This document shows, piece by piece, positions 10,062 through 16,451 of a stretch of DNA of 22,696 bases. Every line of letters begins with the position of its first letter. Positions within the stretch are counted from its first letter, which is position 1. The DNA lies in IMG/VR virus record IMGVR_UViG_3300044718_000043, positions 1 through 22,696 of that record. One strand, 5' to 3'. A model generated the notes under the pieces. The model ran no database searches, was not told where the DNA came from, and was given only the letters and a program-made list of their open reading frames with translations. A program made the position numbers and the translations under genes. This stretch comes from a virus.

Positions 10062-10604
10062 TCACTTCCGGTAGTCGCTGATGAGTGAGCCTGTGGAATA
10101 GCTCTGTGCGGTCGTAATGGCCGTGCCTGAGATTGTGTAATCGTTGCCTGCGCCGGGTGTGAGCCGGATGCCGCCTGCCCAGATCTTCACGCTTCCTGAA
10201 ACCGGGGTGTTGGCGAGTGTCCAAGACGTGCCGGAGCCGGACACGACTTCGTTCTCGACGAAGGTGCCGGGCAGCGCCGACTGAATATCGGCGATCATTT
10301 TGGCGGTGATGCCGAGCACGAGGCTGTAGGTCTTGCCGCCCGTGTTGTGGTTGGCGGCGCTCGTTCCCTCCTGAGCGCGGCTGATCGTCAGGGTGTCGCC
10401 GGTGACCCCGGTGACGCGGATGATCTCGACGTTCGGGTCGTTGGCCGGGTTCGGGAAGTCGGTGCTGTTCCACCAGACCATGTTGAACGGTGTCGCCGGC
10501 AATTTCGCGCCCTGGCCGGACTGAAGGGCGATCGACGTGACTGACGAGTTGTAGCCGGTGGAGGCTTGGACGTTTGCGAAGTTGGCGACGCTATCGAGGG
10601 TCAT
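10062..10604 (-). CDS. Beta-rich phage structural protein of unknown role
   Basis: This 180-residue protein starts MTLDSVANFANVQASTGYNS. The stretch 'TPFNMVWWNSTDFPNPANDP', then 'VEIIRVTGVTGDTLTISRAQEGTSAANHNTG', is a recurrent module of phage fibre/baseplate-associated proteins: a value-to-event beta domain with the 'V-T-x-V-x-x-x-T-L-T-x-x-R-x-Q-E-G-T' signature. The rest is strand-rich and Gly/Thr/Ser-rich, ending in ISDYRK. Its start overlaps the portal stop by ATGA (10601-10604), so it is coupled to the portal gene. It leads into the fibre-like gene 17 nt downstream, and the two may work together. Confidence 0.7.
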   Translation of the reverse strand: MTLDSVANFANVQASTGYNSSVTSIALQSGQGAKLPATPFNMVWWNSTDFPNPANDPNVEIIRVTGVTGDTLTISRAQEGTSAANHNTGGKTYSLVLGITAKMIADIQSALPGTFVENEVVSGSGTSWTLANTPVSGSVKIWAGGIRLTPGAGNDYTISGTAITTAQSYSTGSLISDYRK

Positions 10605-12961
10605 ATTTCAATATCTTCAGGGCGGATAAAGCAACGACAGTCAGGGTGAAGCGGCGGCGTATCGATGTCGCCGTAGCTGGCGGTCATGGTGCCGCCATTC
10701 GAACCTTCGATGGTGTCACCCGCATTGTAGAAATTCTCCTCAACCGCGATCTCCTTGCCATCCTGCGCTTGGCAGAATTCGCAGACCTTGCCGTCGTCGG
10801 CAGTGAACCACTTCACCGTCTTCACGACACCACTGGCCTGCCATGCGGCCTTGTTCGCGTAGTTGGCGGCGCGAAAGCTCTCGGTCTTCGCGATCAGGCC
10901 GGCTCGGCGCTCGTCCGCAAAGCTGTAGACGTCGTCGACTGTTTCGGTCAGCTCATTGAGGTTCGTGCCGCCTGTCTGCGTGAGCTTCTCGCCGATCTTG
11001 TCTTTGAGCTGATCGAGGGTCGTCTCGTTGTAGCTCCGGGCCATCTTCGAGATGCCCTGCTCCAGCGCGTTTCGAATGGACTGGTCGGCGAGAATGTCCT
11101 GTCCCTGTGCGCCGATCATCGCGAGCGCGGCCGCAGCCTCATCGCGCGCCAGGCTCATGATGATCGGCGTGGCGAGGTTGACGGTGATGCCCATCCATTC
11201 CTTTTCATCGAACAGCTCGTCGAGGGCTTTGACGATGCCGGTCGCCTTGGCCAGATTGGCGAGCACCTCCTCCTTCTGGTTCTTGTTGATACCGAGGAAG
11301 ACCTTGTGCAGCTCGGCTTCGGCGCGCTCGCTGCGGTCGGCGAAGCGTTTCCAGTGCTCCATGTACTCGGCATGGGTCAGGTCTTTGACGCTCTTGGCCG
11401 TGTAGTCGGTCTGGATTTTCGTATCGAGTTGCTTCTTGAACGCGTCGGTAAGAGCATGACGGAACTGAGCGGTCGCGCTGTGAGCCGATTTGCCGCCGGT
11501 GCGGATGCGGATCGGCCGTGCTGCCCAGCCTTCAACGGTCTTGGCGTTTCGCCGGAAAAGCTTTTCGGGTGTCGGGGCCGATTCCTTGCCTCCTGACGGT
11601 GCCGCCTCAGGAGCGAGTTCGTCACCTTCGGGTTCGGCGGTTTGGCCGGCGGGCACCATCGCGGCCGGTCGCATGAGCTGATCGCCGCCGGCAACCGGTC
11701 CCACGCCAAGGAATTGGTCACGGGCCTCGTTCTGCGTGAGGAGCGGCATGTTGCCGACGGTCGCCTGCATCTCCTGCGTTCGGAACGCCTTGTCCTCTGG
11801 CACTGGGTCGATGAAGGTCAGGTACAGGTCGTCGCCGTAGCGCGGGACGAGGAACTCGTTGAGGTACGAGAGGACGAGTTCGACCTTCGGCTTGATGGTG
11901 CGCTTGCTGAACACGTAGTCGGCCGTTTCGGCCGTGGCGCGATTGGTGTCGCTCTCGGCCGTGCCGAGGATCGTCTTTGAGACGCGGAAGCCAGCGAGGA
12001 TGCGGTCGCGGGTGGCCTCGGCTAGGTTCTGGAAGTCCATGTCCTTGTGGGTGACGCCGGTGTGCTCCAGCTTCACGCCCTTCGGGAGGACCGGGATTTT
12101 GTGGGCATTCTCGACACCAGCGTAGCCATCGCGCATGCCGCGCTTAATGCGATCGAGGTTTCCTTCGACGTTCGTTTCGGTCTCGATGTAGAGCCCGATC
12201 TGCGCGCCATTGAGGAAGTATTTTCTGTTGTACTCCATCGCGTAGTTGTCGCTGTCGATCCACACGGGGATCGTCTGCGGCACGCCAATTCCGACATACG
12301 GGTCATTCGGGTCGGGATATTTGCCGTGGAGGATCTGGTACGGCTGGAAGGTGTAGACCTTGCCATCGAGTGTGAACTCGTAATGGCTGATCTTGTATGG
12401 AAAGACGCTCTTGTTGAGCTTCACCTTCACACGGCCGGGATTGAGCGGATAGATCGCTCGCGGCTTGTCGCGGTCGCTGTTGACGCCATCGAGCAGCCAG
12501 AAGAAATTTCCGGTCAGCTCCAGGTGGGCCATCGTGACGTACTTCAGCTCCGGCCCGGTCATGTGCTCGTTCACGCCGTCGAGGAGCGTGAGCAGCTCGT
12601 GGTCGGGATCGGCTTCCTCCTGATCGTCGTTTGGTTTGACCTGGTAGAGCCTGAACTGAATGTTGGACACTTCGGACGCGATGGCGTTGACGGCTGCGTA
12701 GGTCCAGCCGGTGAAGTTGGCCATCGCCTTCGCGGCGTCCACACTCTTGGAGCCAGAGGGCTTGTAGATCGCGAGCGGGTCGCTGCCGCCCGCCCCGGAC
12801 TTGGTGTCTACGTCCGGGATTTCGGCCTTTCGGGTGCCGCGGCGGTCGCGGAGGATGACGCGGCCATCGCCCGTGAACCCCTCGTAGGCATTGACAGGCG
12901 CGGTGTCCTTGCGGTTGAATCTGCTGGTGAGTTCGTCGCCGATCGCGCGGAAGAAGGGCAT
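10601..12961 (-). CDS. Portal protein fused to MuF-type minor head protein
   Basis: This 786-residue protein is two canonical head proteins in one chain. Residues about 60-430 are an HK97-family portal, the dodecameric DNA channel: 'VNAIASEVSNIQFRLYQ', 'ELTGNFFWLLDGVN', 'YPLNPGRVKV', 'KYFLNGAQIGLYIET', 'FRVSKTILGTAESDTNRATAE' and 'RTIKPKVELVLSYLNEFLVPRYG'. A Pro/Ala/Glu-rich linker (about 430-470) follows. Residues about 640-780 are a MuF domain with C727-E-F-C730 and 'PPLHPDCRC' (H772, C775, C777), probably metal-binding. Family portals are normally 400-500 residues. ATG 12961 has no Shine-Dalgarno; an extended -10 lies at 12974-12979. Confidence 0.95.
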   Translation of the reverse strand: MPFFRAIGDELTSRFNRKDTAPVNAYEGFTGDGRVILRDRRGTRKAEIPDVDTKSGAGGSDPLAIYKPSGSKSVDAAKAMANFTGWTYAAVNAIASEVSNIQFRLYQVKPNDDQEEADPDHELLTLLDGVNEHMTGPELKYVTMAHLELTGNFFWLLDGVNSDRDKPRAIYPLNPGRVKVKLNKSVFPYKISHYEFTLDGKVYTFQPYQILHGKYPDPNDPYVGIGVPQTIPVWIDSDNYAMEYNRKYFLNGAQIGLYIETETNVEGNLDRIKRGMRDGYAGVENAHKIPVLPKGVKLEHTGVTHKDMDFQNLAEATRDRILAGFRVSKTILGTAESDTNRATAETADYVFSKRTIKPKVELVLSYLNEFLVPRYGDDLYLTFIDPVPEDKAFRTQEMQATVGNMPLLTQNEARDQFLGVGPVAGGDQLMRPAAMVPAGQTAEPEGDELAPEAAPSGGKESAPTPEKLFRRNAKTVEGWAARPIRIRTGGKSAHSATAQFRHALTDAFKKQLDTKIQTDYTAKSVKDLTHAEYMEHWKRFADRSERAEAELHKVFLGINKNQKEEVLANLAKATGIVKALDELFDEKEWMGITVNLATPIIMSLARDEAAAALAMIGAQGQDILADQSIRNALEQGISKMARSYNETTLDQLKDKIGEKLTQTGGTNLNELTETVDDVYSFADERRAGLIAKTESFRAANYANKAAWQASGVVKTVKWFTADDGKVCEFCQAQDGKEIAVEENFYNAGDTIEGSNGGTMTASYGDIDTPPLHPDCRCFIRPEDIEI

Positions 12962-13019: not shown

Positions 13020-13526
13020 TCAGGCTACGTGAGCGGCCTTCTTGGCGTAATGGCGTTGTAAGATTGCGTTGGCTTGTTCGGGGTTTCGTCGCCGCCAACT
13101 CTTGCTGGAGCACCGCTTAGAACAGAATTGACGATTGGATTGCGGTGCATGAAATTGCTTTTGACATTCGTCACAGATACGTTCCTTGCTGATTAGTTGC
13201 CGGCTGGCGGCATGGCTAGCATGCCAACGTCGTCCTGCTGAAGTCCGGTGCCACGCTTTTGCATCGTTGAGAAAATGGTCGCGTGAGTGTTTTACACCGT
13301 CTATTGCTTGAAGATTGGATGGATTGTTATTAAACGTGTCATGGTCTTTGTGATGAACATGGATAGCGCTTGGAATATCGCCGAAGACATCAATGTATAT
13401 ATCTCTATGGAGAAAATGCGTCTTTCCGTCGAAACTGGCGCGGTAATAAACACGAGCGTCGCGTCGTTTGGACTGAGGGTAACGTCGATACGAACGGCCT
13501 TTGTAAATTACGGTATCTGGAGGCAT
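13020..13526 (-). CDS. HNH homing endonuclease with C-terminal zinc ribbon
   Basis: This 168-residue protein has the HNH_3-type core at residues 56-73, 'HVHHKDHDTFNNNPSNLQ', with H58-H59, followed by 'GVKHSRDH'. The N-terminus (YKGRSYRRYPQSKRRDARVYYR) resembles the strand region that precedes this core in phage homing nucleases. Residues 118-139 form a treble-clef/zinc ribbon, C118-x2-C121-x13-C135-x3-C139, that could bind DNA. The gene sits between the large terminase and the portal, a favourite insertion point. ATG 13526 follows a TATCCT box by 7 nt, so it may be transcribed leaderless from its own promoter. Confidence 0.88.
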   Translation of the reverse strand: MPPDTVIYKGRSYRRYPQSKRRDARVYYRASFDGKTHFLHRDIYIDVFGDIPSAIHVHHKDHDTFNNNPSNLQAIDGVKHSRDHFLNDAKAWHRTSAGRRWHASHAASRQLISKERICDECQKQFHAPQSNRQFCSKRCSSKSWRRRNPEQANAILQRHYAKKAAHVA

Positions 13527-13561: not shown

Positions 13562-15013
13562 TTAGACGTAGTGGACAACCGGCGCTTCAATCCCGGCCCC
13601 GGCGACACCTAGAATCAGCCACACTAGGCCATCAACGCCGTCGTCATGTTTTTCTCCGCCAAACCCGAGTAACTGCGTCAGCAGTTGCTCACATCCAGTC
13701 CGCGGAAATTTCACCGTACCGTTTTTGATATAGCGTGCGGCGACGCGCAAACGCGCACGCTTATCTTTGATGGGATGCATGGGCGTTACGGCGAAGTTAC
13801 GCCGCTCCATTTCCTCGATAGCGGCTTGTTGATACGCGACTGCTTCGACATAAAACTCACTGCTCATTTGCGAACTGTGGCGAATGTTGTCCATTGTATC
13901 CATGGTTTCGTGAAAGCCCATTCGACGAATGCAAGGATGCGGCTGGATGTAGATTTCGAGCTTCCCGCCCGGCCAGGTGACTTCCCCACTCACGATCGCG
14001 GTGTAGTCGGCGCTCTCCTTCGTGCTGATGGCGAGGTCGACGCCGTGCGCCAGGTAGTTCCCGTCGTCGAACGGCGGATCATCGTAGTAGTGGATGTCTT
14101 CCGGGAGAACGTCCTGCCCTTCTTCCGGCACGACCTGCAAGAGCATTTCGCGGCGAAAGCCGATGTCGCCGAGTTCGTTGCGCTTCTGGTTGATCGCTTC
14201 TTGGGTCGGGTACTTGGCCTTCCAGGTGCAGCGTTCTATTTCCGTTCCTTCACCTTCTCTTAGGAGAGAGAACTCTAATACCTTGAATATTCCCGTGTTC
14301 TTCAAACGTGCCATCAAGCCGTCGGTGTGCAGCCAGTTCCCAATGCAGATGACGCGGCCGGTCTGCTCGTCGACTGAGGGGATGACCGTTCCACGGAACC
14401 AGCGGTCGGACTTGTCGCGGTTCTCCTGCGTGCGAACCCAGTCCAAGTCTTCCACGTCGTCGGCGACGACGAGGGATGGACGGTGTTGGCGGTGCTTCAC
14501 ACCGCGCACCTTCTGGCCGCGTGAGCGCGAGAGGATGCGTACCCCGTTGTCGAGGACGCAGTTCATCGTCTGCCAGTCCTCGTCGCTCTCCAGCGTCGGC
14601 TCAGGGCGCGGATCGTCGATCTTTTTGTATTTGAGGTGGCCGTAGTCCCGGAGGATCAGCTCGTTGTTGCGCAGCTCGTGCTGGACGCTAGAGGCGTTGA
14701 TCGAGGCCTGGCCGCGCGTGTCCGCGAGCATGATGATGAAAGGATAGCGGTCGGGGTGTTCCAGCGCCGCCCAGAGGATAAGCGCCAAGCTAGCCATCGT
14801 GCTCTTGGCGCAGCCACGGAAGCCGATGATCTCCAGGCGCTTGCAGTCGGGATCTTCGAGCGCGTTGGCCATCTCATCGAAGAAATCCGAGAGATCGGCC
14901 GGGAAGTGGTGCGGGAGGTAGGTGAGACAGAAGCCCTTGAGGGTCTTGGCCGCTGCGCGCCGGATTTCCGGGTCGTCCACGAGACGCTCAAGTTGAAGCG
15001 GCTCCGTTTGCAT
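13562..15013 (-). CDS. terL: Terminase large subunit (packaging ATPase-nuclease)
   Basis: This 483-residue protein is the motor that pumps and cuts concatemeric phage DNA at the portal. The ATPase half has Walker A G64-F-R-G-C-A-K70-S71 and Walker B at 181-188 (LVVADDVE). The RNase H-like nuclease half shows D326 in 'HGVDLAIS', E390 in 'FYVEAVAYQQ' and D457-D458/D461 in 'KHDDGVDGLVWLI', the expected acidic triad. Length and domain order are normal and no damage is seen. The start ATG 15013 lies within the end of a small upstream frame (26-nt overlap). No Shine-Dalgarno is visible and the base before ATG is T. Confidence 0.96.
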   Translation of the reverse strand: MQTEPLQLERLVDDPEIRRAAAKTLKGFCLTYLPHHFPADLSDFFDEMANALEDPDCKRLEIIGFRGCAKSTMASLALILWAALEHPDRYPFIIMLADTRGQASINASSVQHELRNNELILRDYGHLKYKKIDDPRPEPTLESDEDWQTMNCVLDNGVRILSRSRGQKVRGVKHRQHRPSLVVADDVEDLDWVRTQENRDKSDRWFRGTVIPSVDEQTGRVICIGNWLHTDGLMARLKNTGIFKVLEFSLLREGEGTEIERCTWKAKYPTQEAINQKRNELGDIGFRREMLLQVVPEEGQDVLPEDIHYYDDPPFDDGNYLAHGVDLAISTKESADYTAIVSGEVTWPGGKLEIYIQPHPCIRRMGFHETMDTMDNIRHSSQMSSEFYVEAVAYQQAAIEEMERRNFAVTPMHPIKDKRARLRVAARYIKNGTVKFPRTGCEQLLTQLLGFGGEKHDDGVDGLVWLILGVAGAGIEAPVVHYV

Positions 15014-15188
15014 ATACGCTGTTTTCGCGCAGCGATTTGCCGAGCGCTAAATTGCATCGCTCTCGGTGGGCTGGGAATGAATGGGAGCGCTTGTGATTAG
15101 GGCACCACATATAAAATCGGGTGTTCTTGATCGACCCTTCGCTGATTGCGCCAATTGCCTTCCGAATTGTTGGATTGATGTCACTCAT
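14988..15188 (-). CDS. Small Cys/His-containing protein upstream of terL
   Basis: This is a 66-residue frame from ATG 15188 (MSDINPTIRKAIGAISEGSI). The centre 'FYMWCPNHKRSHSFPAHRERC' has C-x2-H and H-x3-C pairs that could hold a zinc ion. It ends inside the terL start with a 26-nt overlap, which suggests coupling. A possible promoter (TGT-TACAAT) lies at 15259-15264, about 70 nt upstream. ATG is preceded by T, like the other structural genes. I do not recognise a family. Terminal overlap and plausible composition argue that it is translated, but a chance frame is possible. Confidence 0.45.
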   Translation of the reverse strand: MSDINPTIRKAIGAISEGSIKNTRFYMWCPNHKRSHSFPAHRERCNLALGKSLRENSVYANGAAST

Positions 15189-15258
15189 AAATTCGCTCAA
15201 ACGTGCGCCCGGCTAGCAAGACAGGCGCACACTCGAACGGGCTAGCTGATATGTGCAT

Positions 15259-15264
15259 ATTGTA
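15259..15264 (-). promoter_or_regulatory. Extended -10 box (TGT-TACAAT) for terL-side transcription
   Basis: The minus strand reads GTGTTACAATATGC. The TGT before TACAAT fits an extended -10. It lies in the divergent gap between the plus-strand DUF2441-like gene and the minus-strand small gene/terL. The heptamer GGCTAGC occurs twice beside it (15211-15217 and 15240-15246, 29 bp apart), a possible operator. Confidence 0.35.
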
Positions 15265-15275
15265 ACACGCGCGGT

Positions 15276-15283
15276 GAGGTGAT
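15276..15283 (+). promoter_or_regulatory. Strong Shine-Dalgarno of the DUF2441-like gene
   Basis: GAGGTGAT at about 15276-15283 is an eight-base complement of the conserved 16S rRNA 3' end and lies 4 nt before ATG 15287-15289. It fixes the start and contrasts with the Shine-Dalgarno-less genes around it. Confidence 0.75.
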
Positions 15284-15286
15284 TCG

Positions 15287-15898
15287 ATGGTCGAAAGCGT
15301 GACGAACAGGAAGCTATATCAGCTCTCGCTCAGCAGTGGCTACGAACAGGCCTTTGTGCTCGGCCAGAGCGTAACGATTGGCCAGGACTACAATCCATTT
15401 TTCAAGTTCTACGAAACGACGATGGTGTATCCGGTTGCGGACGGAAACACCGGCGCAACGATTCAGGTGAACGCCGTCGATTGGTTGCTAGCAGTGAGAG
15501 CAGGTAACATCGCGCCAAATCCTGGCGTCCTAGCCGACAAGGCAGTAGAGGTCAGTCAGCACTACATTATGTTGGCGCGTGAGTTGTTGATGGAGCAAAT
15601 TCGGCTTGAAGAGTTCAGTGGAAAACCACCGTCACGGCAGAAATGTCTATTTCTTGTGGACAGTGCTGATGAGGCAAAGACTTGGCTTCCGTTGTTGGGT
15701 GGGGCTCGAACCGTTTGCGAGCTGACATGTACCGGCAGCGTTCATCGGGCGGACTCGCGGCTGATGGTCAGAAATAGTGAGCCGTTGTCTGTGACGAGGG
15801 ACAGGGCGCGAGCGTATTGGCGGGGAGAAGCGAACGCCGATCCCCGAATGGAAATCCTTTTCGAGGGTGAGGCCGTGGTCTCAGGCGTTGGCTTGTGA
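15287..15898 (+). CDS. DUF2441-like protein, possible ADP-ribosyltransferase-type accessory gene
   Basis: This 203-residue protein begins MVESVTNRKLYQLSLSSGYE. The C-terminal half matches the DUF2441 pattern: 'EQIRLEEFSGKPPSRQKCLFLVD' region (103-125), W133, then 'VHRADSRLM', 'RARAYWRGE' (173-181) and 'EILFEGEAVV' (189-198). I recall such proteins as relatives of the ADP-ribosyltransferase fold; that link is an inference from memory. It is transcribed against the surrounding packaging genes and has a strong Shine-Dalgarno, GAGGTGAT, 4 nt before the ATG and complementary to the 16S 3' end, which its neighbours lack. Its end overlaps the convergent small-terminase candidate by 18 bp. It looks like an acquired 'moron'. 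Confidence 0.75.
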   Translation: MVESVTNRKLYQLSLSSGYEQAFVLGQSVTIGQDYNPFFKFYETTMVYPVADGNTGATIQVNAVDWLLAVRAGNIAPNPGVLADKAVEVSQHYIMLARELLMEQIRLEEFSGKPPSRQKCLFLVDSADEAKTWLPLLGGARTVCELTCTGSVHRADSRLMVRNSEPLSVTRDRARAYWRGEANADPRMEILFEGEAVVSGVGL

Positions 15899-16438
15899 AG
15901 CGGGCGTCAGTACGGGCACCAACCGCTCAATTGTTGCTGCGGGCAGCAATCCCCCACGTTTCCACGACGCGATGACCGCCACCCGGATTTCATCGGGGAG
16001 CGGGTCGTAGCGGAATTCCTTCGCGATCATGTCGATCGGCTTCTTGTACATGCCGGCTGCGGCTTCCGCGCTGAGGATGGCGAGGTCCATCATGACGATG
16101 TTCTTGGCGGCTTCGTTCACATCGCGGTTGAGGGGTGGCTTCTGGCCAGGGTGGTCGTCCTGCTTCCAGTAAAGGATTTCGAATAGGCGCTCGCGCATCA
16201 TGCGGTAGTTCTCGCGAGTGAACTGCATGCGCTCTTCGATCTTGGTGCGGTCGGCTTCGGATAGCGCTTGGCGCTCGACCTTCATGGCCAGCTTGGCGAT
16301 GAACTTGCGAGTGAAGGTGCGGGCGAACTGCTTTTCGAGCTGCTGCTGAAGGTCGACGACGCTGATGAGCGGGTCTTTGGCTCTGGCGTCGCGAATCTCG
16401 CGGCGAATCTTGTGGTCAAGCTCCGGGACGATCCTCAT
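15881..16438 (-). CDS. Probable small terminase subunit (HTH DNA-binding)
   Basis: The protein has 185 residues from ATG 16438 (MRIVPELDHKIRREIRDARA); an ATG at 16447 would add three residues but overlaps the TACAAT box. The N-terminal 60 residues are basic and helical ('HKIRREIRDARAKDPLISVVDLQQQLEKQF', 'FTRKFIAKLAMKVERQ'), consistent with a helix-turn-helix that recognises the packaging site. The centre is helical, suited to oligomerisation ('FTRENYRMMRERLFEILYWKQ', 'AAKNIVMMDLAILSAEAAAGMY'). It lies upstream of terL in the same direction, the usual place of terS. No family signature is certain, so it could be another DNA-binding protein. Confidence 0.55.
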   Translation of the reverse strand: MRIVPELDHKIRREIRDARAKDPLISVVDLQQQLEKQFARTFTRKFIAKLAMKVERQALSEADRTKIEERMQFTRENYRMMRERLFEILYWKQDDHPGQKPPLNRDVNEAAKNIVMMDLAILSAEAAAGMYKKPIDMIAKEFRYDPLPDEIRVAVIASWKRGGLLPAATIERLVPVLTPASQANA

Positions 16439-16445
16439 GGTCCCC

Positions 16446-16451
16446 ATTGTA
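16446..16451 (-). promoter_or_regulatory. -10-like box TACAAT 7 nt before the terS-candidate start
   Basis: TACAAT is followed by 7 nt and the ATG at 16438. Transcription starting about 7 nt downstream would begin at or next to the start codon. The alternative ATG at 16447 would lie inside this box and outside such a transcript. Confidence 0.4.

What the first reader, a model, noticed from the sequence alone, without database searches (positions are those of the whole stretch)
15201..15898. Divergent DUF2441/ART-like accessory gene between the terminase genes
A plus-strand gene interrupts the minus-strand packaging module. It has an 8-base Shine-Dalgarno, lacks T at -1 and has a control region with two GGCTAGC copies 29 bp apart. 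The C-terminal pattern suggests DUF2441. If that family has the ADP-ribosyltransferase fold, the protein could modify host or phage targets, as T4 Alt and Mod do, or serve as prophage-expressed defence.
Basis: partly seen in the sequence, partly recalled or inferred. Interest (0 to 1): 0.6.

Follow-up and report, generated by a model that had tools for sequence, protein, structure and literature searches.

The report
Phage cargo gene, ADP-ribosyltransferase fold (DUF2441)
A phage carries, wedged between two conserved DNA-packaging genes, a swappable extra gene for a small untested protein with the fold of ADP-ribosyltransferase enzymes; close relatives carry unrelated genes in the same slot, so it is probably cargo that helps the infected bacterium or the phage against rivals, but its activity has never been measured.

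Summary
A 203-aa plus-strand ORF (15287-15898) lies inside a minus-strand packaging module, with an 8-base Shine-Dalgarno and two GGCTAGC 29 bp apart. It is a DUF2441 protein (Pfam 47.4 bits, cut-off 25). The ART-fold question is largely answered: Pfam places DUF2441 in the ART clan, the protein matches the solved DUF2441 structure 2AUA (linked by others to diphtheria-toxin-type catalytic sites), and a model of a family member matches rifampin ADP-ribosyltransferase (Foldseek probability 0.99), then RES toxins. It is cargo: 0 of 11 close relatives with a readable slot have it; their slot is empty (8-29 bp) or holds unrelated genes, one of the AbiGi phage-resistance family. Two corrections. The control region is not the gene's own: it is a conserved element of about 70 bp (10 copies, 8 phages) whose promoter and hairpin leader point the other way, into small genes before the large terminase. 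And the window protein and its nearest relative have Gln where 17 of 20 family members have the motif-I His, so activity cannot be assumed. No sequence link to T4 ModA/ModB was found. Best reading: a stand-alone ART-fold lysogenic-conversion gene, function untested, defence most likely. New member of a known kind.

The parts
15287..15898 (+). DUF2441 gene, 203 aa; predicted ADP-ribosyltransferase fold; Gln12 at the motif-I position in strand 1, Glu189 in the last strand
   Evidence: ORF; Pfam PF10386 47.4 bits; AlphaFold2 model pLDDT 89, pTM 0.80; alignment of 20 proteins
15276..15283 (+). Shine-Dalgarno GAGGTGAT, 3 nt before the ATG
   Evidence: read directly
15192..15268 (-). conserved promoter-leader element of about 70 bp, functional direction minus (towards TerL); holds both GGCTAGC copies
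   Evidence: 84-90% identical copies in the slot of relatives; nhmmer window E 1.9e-23; alignments
15259..15267 (-). extended -10 like sequence TGTTACAAT of the element (TGnTATAAT type in nearly all copies)
   Evidence: alignment; read by eye, no transcription data
15194..15239 (-). leader hairpin of about 18 bp with G-U pairs, ending just before the small gene's ATG
   Evidence: fold -30.6 kcal/mol, z -3.85; 85% of cells paired, 5 pairs changed on both sides
15211..15217 (+). GGCTAGC copy 1
15240..15246 (+). GGCTAGC copy 2
   Evidence: homologue at the same place in L037, 44% identity, E 5e-12
13562..15013 (-). terminase large subunit
   Evidence: PHROG 38
15881..16447 (-). conserved gene in the TerS position; overlaps the DUF2441 3' end by 18 bp
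   Evidence: conserved in 11 relatives; no family match

Best explanation
The gene is a stand-alone lysogenic-conversion (moron) gene of a temperate-type phage of Alphaproteobacteria, probably of Bradyrhizobium kin. It sits in a slot of the packaging module where relatives carry other, unrelated cargo. The protein has the ADP-ribosyltransferase fold. Proposed mechanism (inferred): it is made in the lysogen from its own ribosome-binding site, independently of the minus-strand late genes, binds NAD+ in the cleft between strand 1 (Gln12) and the last strand (Glu189), and modifies an intracellular macromolecule (or consumes NAD+), most likely when a competing phage infects, so that the prophage's host resists superinfection. 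Shown by computation: family, fold, cargo status, slot turnover, purifying selection. Inferred: lysogenic expression, NAD+ use, target, defence role. Part by part I would put ART-fold cargo at about 0.9, catalytic NAD+ chemistry at about 0.55, and a defence role at about 0.4.
For: Pfam DUF2441 47.4 bits; Pfam ART clan lists DUF2441 (PMC7955679); profile match to PDB 2AUA E 4.6e-17; 2AUA was matched by ProFunc to the catalytic sites of diphtheria toxin, exotoxin A and cholix (PMC3024214). The window model matches 2AUA at TM 0.70. The phiES15 family member matches Arr with probability 0.99, then RES toxins, and about 20 of the 48 other listed hits are ART-fold chains by name. Fifteen invariant columns in 20 proteins, all present here. 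Absent from 11 of 11 relatives with a readable slot; slot sizes 8 to 2001 bp with mostly mutually unrelated cargo, one in AbiGi (PF10899 29.4 bits over cut-off 22.4). The rest of the family sits at moron or mobile sites: between lysis genes and terS in lambdoid phages, beside integrases (L003, L020), opposite-strand inside tail genes (L019), on plasmids, and in a Bradyrhizobium island near a CAP12/Pycsar TIR effector (L023). Rare: 3 of 385 and 2 of 369 genomes over cut-off.
Against: Motif-I His is Gln here and in the nearest homologue (17 of 20 have His). No PADLOC match. No promoter or terminator of its own was found by the consensus scan. For the window model itself, ART hits other than 2AUA are individually weak. 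In lambdoid phages the gene is co-directional with late genes, which would also fit late expression. I found no measured activity for any DUF2441 member; only two papers in the library name the family.
Confidence: 0.45

Rival explanations
1. Host-takeover or injected enzyme, as T4 Alt and Mod: made late or packaged, modifies host proteins at the start of infection.
For: About 44% of phage ARTs in one survey lie in packaging/virion or T4-like contexts read as packaging into the head (PMC9503650). In phiES15 and kin DUF2441 is co-directional with late genes, directly before terS.
Against: In the window the gene is on the strand opposite to the packaging genes and absent from close relatives. Many relatives are on plasmids and chromosomes without phage heads. 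No profile similarity to ModA/ModB. No MuF or structural fusion.
Confidence: 0.12
2. Anti-defence enzyme: modifies a host immune protein, as AcrIF11 ADP-ribosylates a CRISPR-Cas component.
For: AcrIF11 is a phage- and plasmid-carried ART with low sequence conservation (PMC12421852); DUF2441 has the same phage-plus-plasmid distribution.
Against: No anti-CRISPR-associated regulator or other anti-defence gene was recognised next to it in the loci read; the slot's one identified cargo is defence-like, not anti-defence.
Confidence: 0.15
3. Catalytically silent or altered ART-like protein: the motif-I Gln abolishes classical transfer, and the protein works by binding (NAD+, ADP-ribose or a partner) or needs a partner protein.
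For: Gln12 here and in L023, Tyr in L018. Human PARP9 (Q-Y-T) and PARP13 (Y-Y-V) carry the same motif-I changes; PARP13 is listed inactive and PARP9 inactive or partner-dependent (PMC7955679, PMC11088682).
Against: All 15 invariant columns, Glu189 included, are kept and the gene is under purifying selection. The Gln is shared with a 60%-identical protein, as if functional. Which residue is motif II was not assigned.
Confidence: 0.2
4. NAD+-depleting or small-molecule-modifying enzyme (RES toxin or Arr-like) rather than a macromolecule modifier.
For: Apart from 2AUA, the nearest solved folds to a family member are Arr (probability 0.99) and RES toxins (0.23-0.35).
Against: Fold nearness does not fix the substrate. 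RES toxins come with a Xre antitoxin, and no constant partner gene was seen beside DUF2441.
Confidence: 0.08

Closest known systems
DUF2441 (Pfam PF10386), solved member BC2332 (PDB 2AUA)
   Same: Same family by profile and fold; many of the same conserved residues; similar length.
   Different: About 23% identity in the Foldseek alignment; 2AUA is from a Bacillus cereus genome; function of both untested.
Cronobacter phage phiES15 gp27 (DUF2441)
   Same: Phage-borne DUF2441, next to the terminase genes.
   Different: 29% identity; co-directional with late genes between Rz and terS; keeps motif-I His; separate clade.
Diphtheria-toxin-like (H-Y-E) ARTs, Arr, RES toxins
   Same: ART fold; Glu in the last strand.
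   Different: Motif-I His is Gln in the window protein; no secretion signal apparent by eye; no antitoxin partner.
T4 ModA/ModB and Alt
   Same: Phage ART superfamily.
   Different: No detectable profile similarity to ModA/ModB (Alt not compared); different context; absent from close relatives.
CmdT of CmdTAC (mRNA ADP-ribosyltransferase defence)
   Same: Works-like candidate: a diphtheria-type ART protecting against phage (PMC11618068).
   Different: CmdT comes with CmdA and CmdC; DUF2441 stands alone. No sequence comparison was made.

Membership tests
DUF2441 (PF10386) | match above the curated cut-off | tested here: met
   47.4 bits against 25; profile positions 46-141
DUF2441 (PF10386) | fold of the solved member 2AUA | tested here: met
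   Foldseek E 1.3e-11, TM 0.70; profile E 4.6e-17
ADP-ribosyltransferase superfamily | ART fold | tested here: met
   a family member matches Arr at probability 0.99 and RES, LT and cholera-toxin chains; the window model itself only weakly; Pfam clan and ProFunc in the literature
ADP-ribosyltransferase superfamily, H-Y-[EDQ] clade | motif-I His in strand 1 | tested here: not met
   Gln12; 17 of 20 family members have His
ADP-ribosyltransferase superfamily, H-Y-[EDQ] clade | motif-III acidic residue in the last strand | tested here: met
   Glu189 invariant in 20 of 20, in strand 188-201; its catalytic role is inferred
ADP-ribosyltransferase superfamily, H-Y-[EDQ] clade | motif-II Tyr | tested here: inconclusive
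   no coordinates available for superposition; several conserved aromatic or polar candidates (Tyr177, Trp178, Ser116)
ADP-ribosyltransferase superfamily | NAD+ binding and transfer | not testable with these tools
   needs the protein
T4 Mod family | sequence profile similarity | tested here: not met
   hhalign probability 0.6%
Moron / lysogenic-conversion gene | absent at the site in close relatives | tested here: met
   0 of 11 relatives; empty sites of 8 and 29 bp
Moron / lysogenic-conversion gene | composition differs from the phage core | tested here: met
   GC3 0.63 against 0.75-0.81 for TerL, TerS-position gene, portal and capsid; modest
Moron / lysogenic-conversion gene | own promoter and terminator | tested here: inconclusive
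   consensus scan found no promoter for the gene and no terminator directly behind it
Moron / lysogenic-conversion gene | expressed in the lysogen | not testable with these tools
   no transcriptome
Known anti-phage defence systems (PADLOC-DB 2.0.0) | match to a listed defence protein | tested here: not met
   no hit for six DUF2441 proteins

The most novel reading that the evidence does not exclude
DUF2441 is an undescribed antitoxin-free class of phage-exclusion ART that spreads as a single gene among prophages, plasmids and islands, and in this phage group it is one of a set of exchangeable defence genes kept in a terS-terL slot beside a conserved promoter-hairpin element. The window branch has replaced the motif-I His by Gln and works with altered chemistry or through a partner.
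Probability: 0.2. Interest if true: 0.65.

Novelty: new member of a known kind. Interest (0 to 1): 0.4.

Why it matters
DUF2441 has had a solved structure since 2005 and a place in the ART clan, yet I found no measured activity for it. The phage-cargo setting makes a testable proposal: a single-gene ART used in phage-phage competition. The His-to-Gln change in one branch offers a natural test of what motif I is needed for. The terS-terL slot, with different cargo in most relatives, is a place to look for further unknown accessory (possibly defence) genes in phages of this group.

Tried and rejected
T4 Mod homology: hhalign against ModA/ModB gave probability 0.6%. The GGCTAGC pair as an operator of the DUF2441 gene: set aside, because the element is shared by phages without the gene, faces the TerL-side small genes, and a 7-base repeat alone is common by chance; that it also acts on DUF2441 is not excluded. 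A cos/pac site: considered because of the position beside the terminase genes; judged less likely because L044 has three copies hundreds to thousands of bases apart and most copies stand directly before start codons, but not excluded. An Rfam leader family: no match. PADLOC: no match. A direct single-sequence scan of genome contigs found nothing although a 60%-identical homologue exists; the alignment-based scan found it, so absence in the first scan means little. E. coli genomes: no DNA-level match to the phiES15 gene. The TerS label: no family match, kept as positional only.

Full report
What is there. The window is a 22,696-bp IMG/VR virus record. The plus-strand ORF 15287-15898 encodes 203 aa behind an exact 8-base Shine-Dalgarno, GAGGTGAT. 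It lies between TerL (13562-15013, minus; PHROG 38) and a minus-strand gene in the TerS position (15881-16447) that has no family match but is conserved in the same place in 11 relatives. The two genes overlap tail to tail by 18 bp. The protein is over the Pfam cut-off for DUF2441 (47.4 against 25 bits).

Fold. The literature places DUF2441 in the Pfam ART clan (PMC7955679). A profile of six family members finds PDB 2AUA at E 4.6e-17. 2AUA (BC2332) was matched by ProFunc to catalytic sites of diphtheria toxin, exotoxin A and cholix toxin (PMC3024214). An AlphaFold2 model of the window protein (13-row alignment, pLDDT 89, pTM 0.80) matches 2AUA at E 1e-11 and TM 0.70; other ART chains appear only as weak hits. 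A model of the phiES15 homologue (pLDDT 92) matches 2AUA, then Arr (E 0.023, probability 0.99, 201 columns), then RES toxins (0.23-0.35), then many LT and cholera-toxin chains: about 20 of the 48 listed non-2AUA hits are ART-fold by their names. The ART fold of the family is therefore well supported; for the window protein it rests mainly on family membership.

Active site. In 20 aligned members 15 columns are invariant and all are kept here, including Glu189 in the last strand. At the strand-1 position where 17 of 20 have His (the YFHI pattern), the window protein and the Bradyrhizobium homologue L023 have Gln, and L018 has Tyr. The same changes occur in PARP9 (Q-Y-T) and PARP13 (Y-Y-V), which are listed as partner-dependent or inactive. 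The gene is under purifying selection against L023 (dN 0.35, dS 2.76, the latter saturated), so it is not a decaying copy, but classical catalysis cannot be assumed.

Cargo status. Thirteen contigs encode TerL at 61-89% identity. Eleven show both the TerS-position gene and TerL; none encodes DUF2441. The gap between the two genes is 8 bp in L043, 29 in L046, 193 in L047 and 831 to 2001 in the rest, against 867 in the window. The cargo genes are mutually unrelated except one small gene shared by three phages. One cargo gene (L040) is an AbiGi-family protein (29.4 bits, cut-off 22.4) and one (L037) has a sub-threshold DUF4145 match and a weak PDC-M05B match. The other cargo genes have no confident assignment. 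The slot is thus a turnover site, with a hint of defence content.

Family distribution. DUF2441 is rare: 3 of 385 and 2 of 369 genomes over the cut-off in two class-wide samples, each of which included the genome used as centre. It occurs in phages, on plasmids, in islands and next to integrases. In phiES15, L014, L015 and L018 it follows lysis genes, with a terminase small subunit next or nearby where the contig extends far enough. In L019 it stands on the opposite strand among what look like tail genes. In L023 it is close to a CAP12/Pycsar TIR protein and to recombinases. In two Kordiimonadales contigs it is in a shared chromosomal setting. No constant partner gene was seen. In the tree the window protein groups with L023 (99) and L003 (96), apart from the lambdoid clade, so the placements beside terminase genes look independent.

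The control region. Window 15192-15268 is 84-90% identical to stretches in the slot of L035, L036, L038, L039, L040 and L044, with a partial copy in L037. nhmmer finds ten copies with E below 1e-5 in eight phages, window included, three of them in L044; an exact pattern search of viral contigs finds it only in the seven relatives' contigs. Read on the minus strand, nearly all copies have TGnTATAAT-like sequence, then a hairpin, then GAGCGAA and, in seven copies, an ATG 3-6 nt on that opens small genes reading towards TerL; in the window this is a 66-aa gene (14988-15188) with a homologue in L037. The leader folds at -30.6 kcal/mol (z -3.85). Pair counts show 5 pairs changed on both sides (6 of 500 shuffles reach this; slid controls reach at most 3), with only ten related sequences, so support is moderate. 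The element is therefore best read as a promoter-leader of the TerL side. DUF2441 starts about 19 bp beyond it on the other strand; whether the element also drives DUF2441 is open. In L037 and L044 other cargo genes start divergently from it in the same way.

Host. A search of 250 genomes of the Bradyrhizobium family found one contig with 88% identity to the first 104 residues of TerL, with an integrase-like ORF nearby that I recognised by eye. With the Bradyrhizobium homologue of DUF2441, this suggests a host in that family and a temperate lifestyle; it is suggestive only.

Mechanism. I favour a lysogenic-conversion gene acting in phage competition, for the reasons above. Fold, cargo status and selection are shown by computation; NAD+ use, target, timing and defence are inferred. 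The T4-type takeover role is less likely because of strand, sporadic presence, plasmid and chromosomal kin and lack of similarity to ModA/ModB. A survey of viral ARTs found about 44% in packaging/virion or T4-like contexts (PMC9503650), so position beside the terminase is itself a known pattern for phage ARTs and not new.

Novelty. New member of a known kind. What may be new is the terS-terL turnover slot with its shared promoter-hairpin element in this phage group, and the motif-I Gln branch.

Noticed in passing
window 15192-15268 and L035, L036, L037, L038, L039, L040, L044: Conserved element of about 70 bp with an extended -10 like sequence and an 18-bp leader hairpin directly before start codons of mostly unrelated small genes; three copies in L044. 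Reminiscent of start-associated sequences of Cluster K mycobacteriophages, but no similarity was tested.
   Followed up: partly
L040 4956-5615: AbiGi-family gene (PF10899) in the same terS-terL slot.
   Followed up: partly
window 13020-13526; L035, L041, L045: HNH-domain gene between TerL and portal, present in some relatives only: a second variable slot; in others this slot holds GIY-YIG-like (sub-threshold) or nucleotidyltransferase genes (L043, L042).
   Followed up: partly
window 10601-12961: Portal protein fused to a Mu F-like head-morphogenesis domain in one 786-aa ORF.
   Followed up: no
L021, L024: Two Kordiimonadales contigs keep DUF2441 in the same chromosomal setting, as if domesticated.
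   Followed up: no
L023 6990-7628: CAP12/Pycsar-type TIR effector gene close to the nearest cellular DUF2441 homologue, between recombinase genes.
   Followed up: partly
L036 2888-3229, L038 5211-5537, L040 5688-6011: Recurring small gene of unknown function (MDYELAKQLK... type), about 42-44% identical among three phages, in the slot; directly behind the element in L038 and L040.
   Followed up: no
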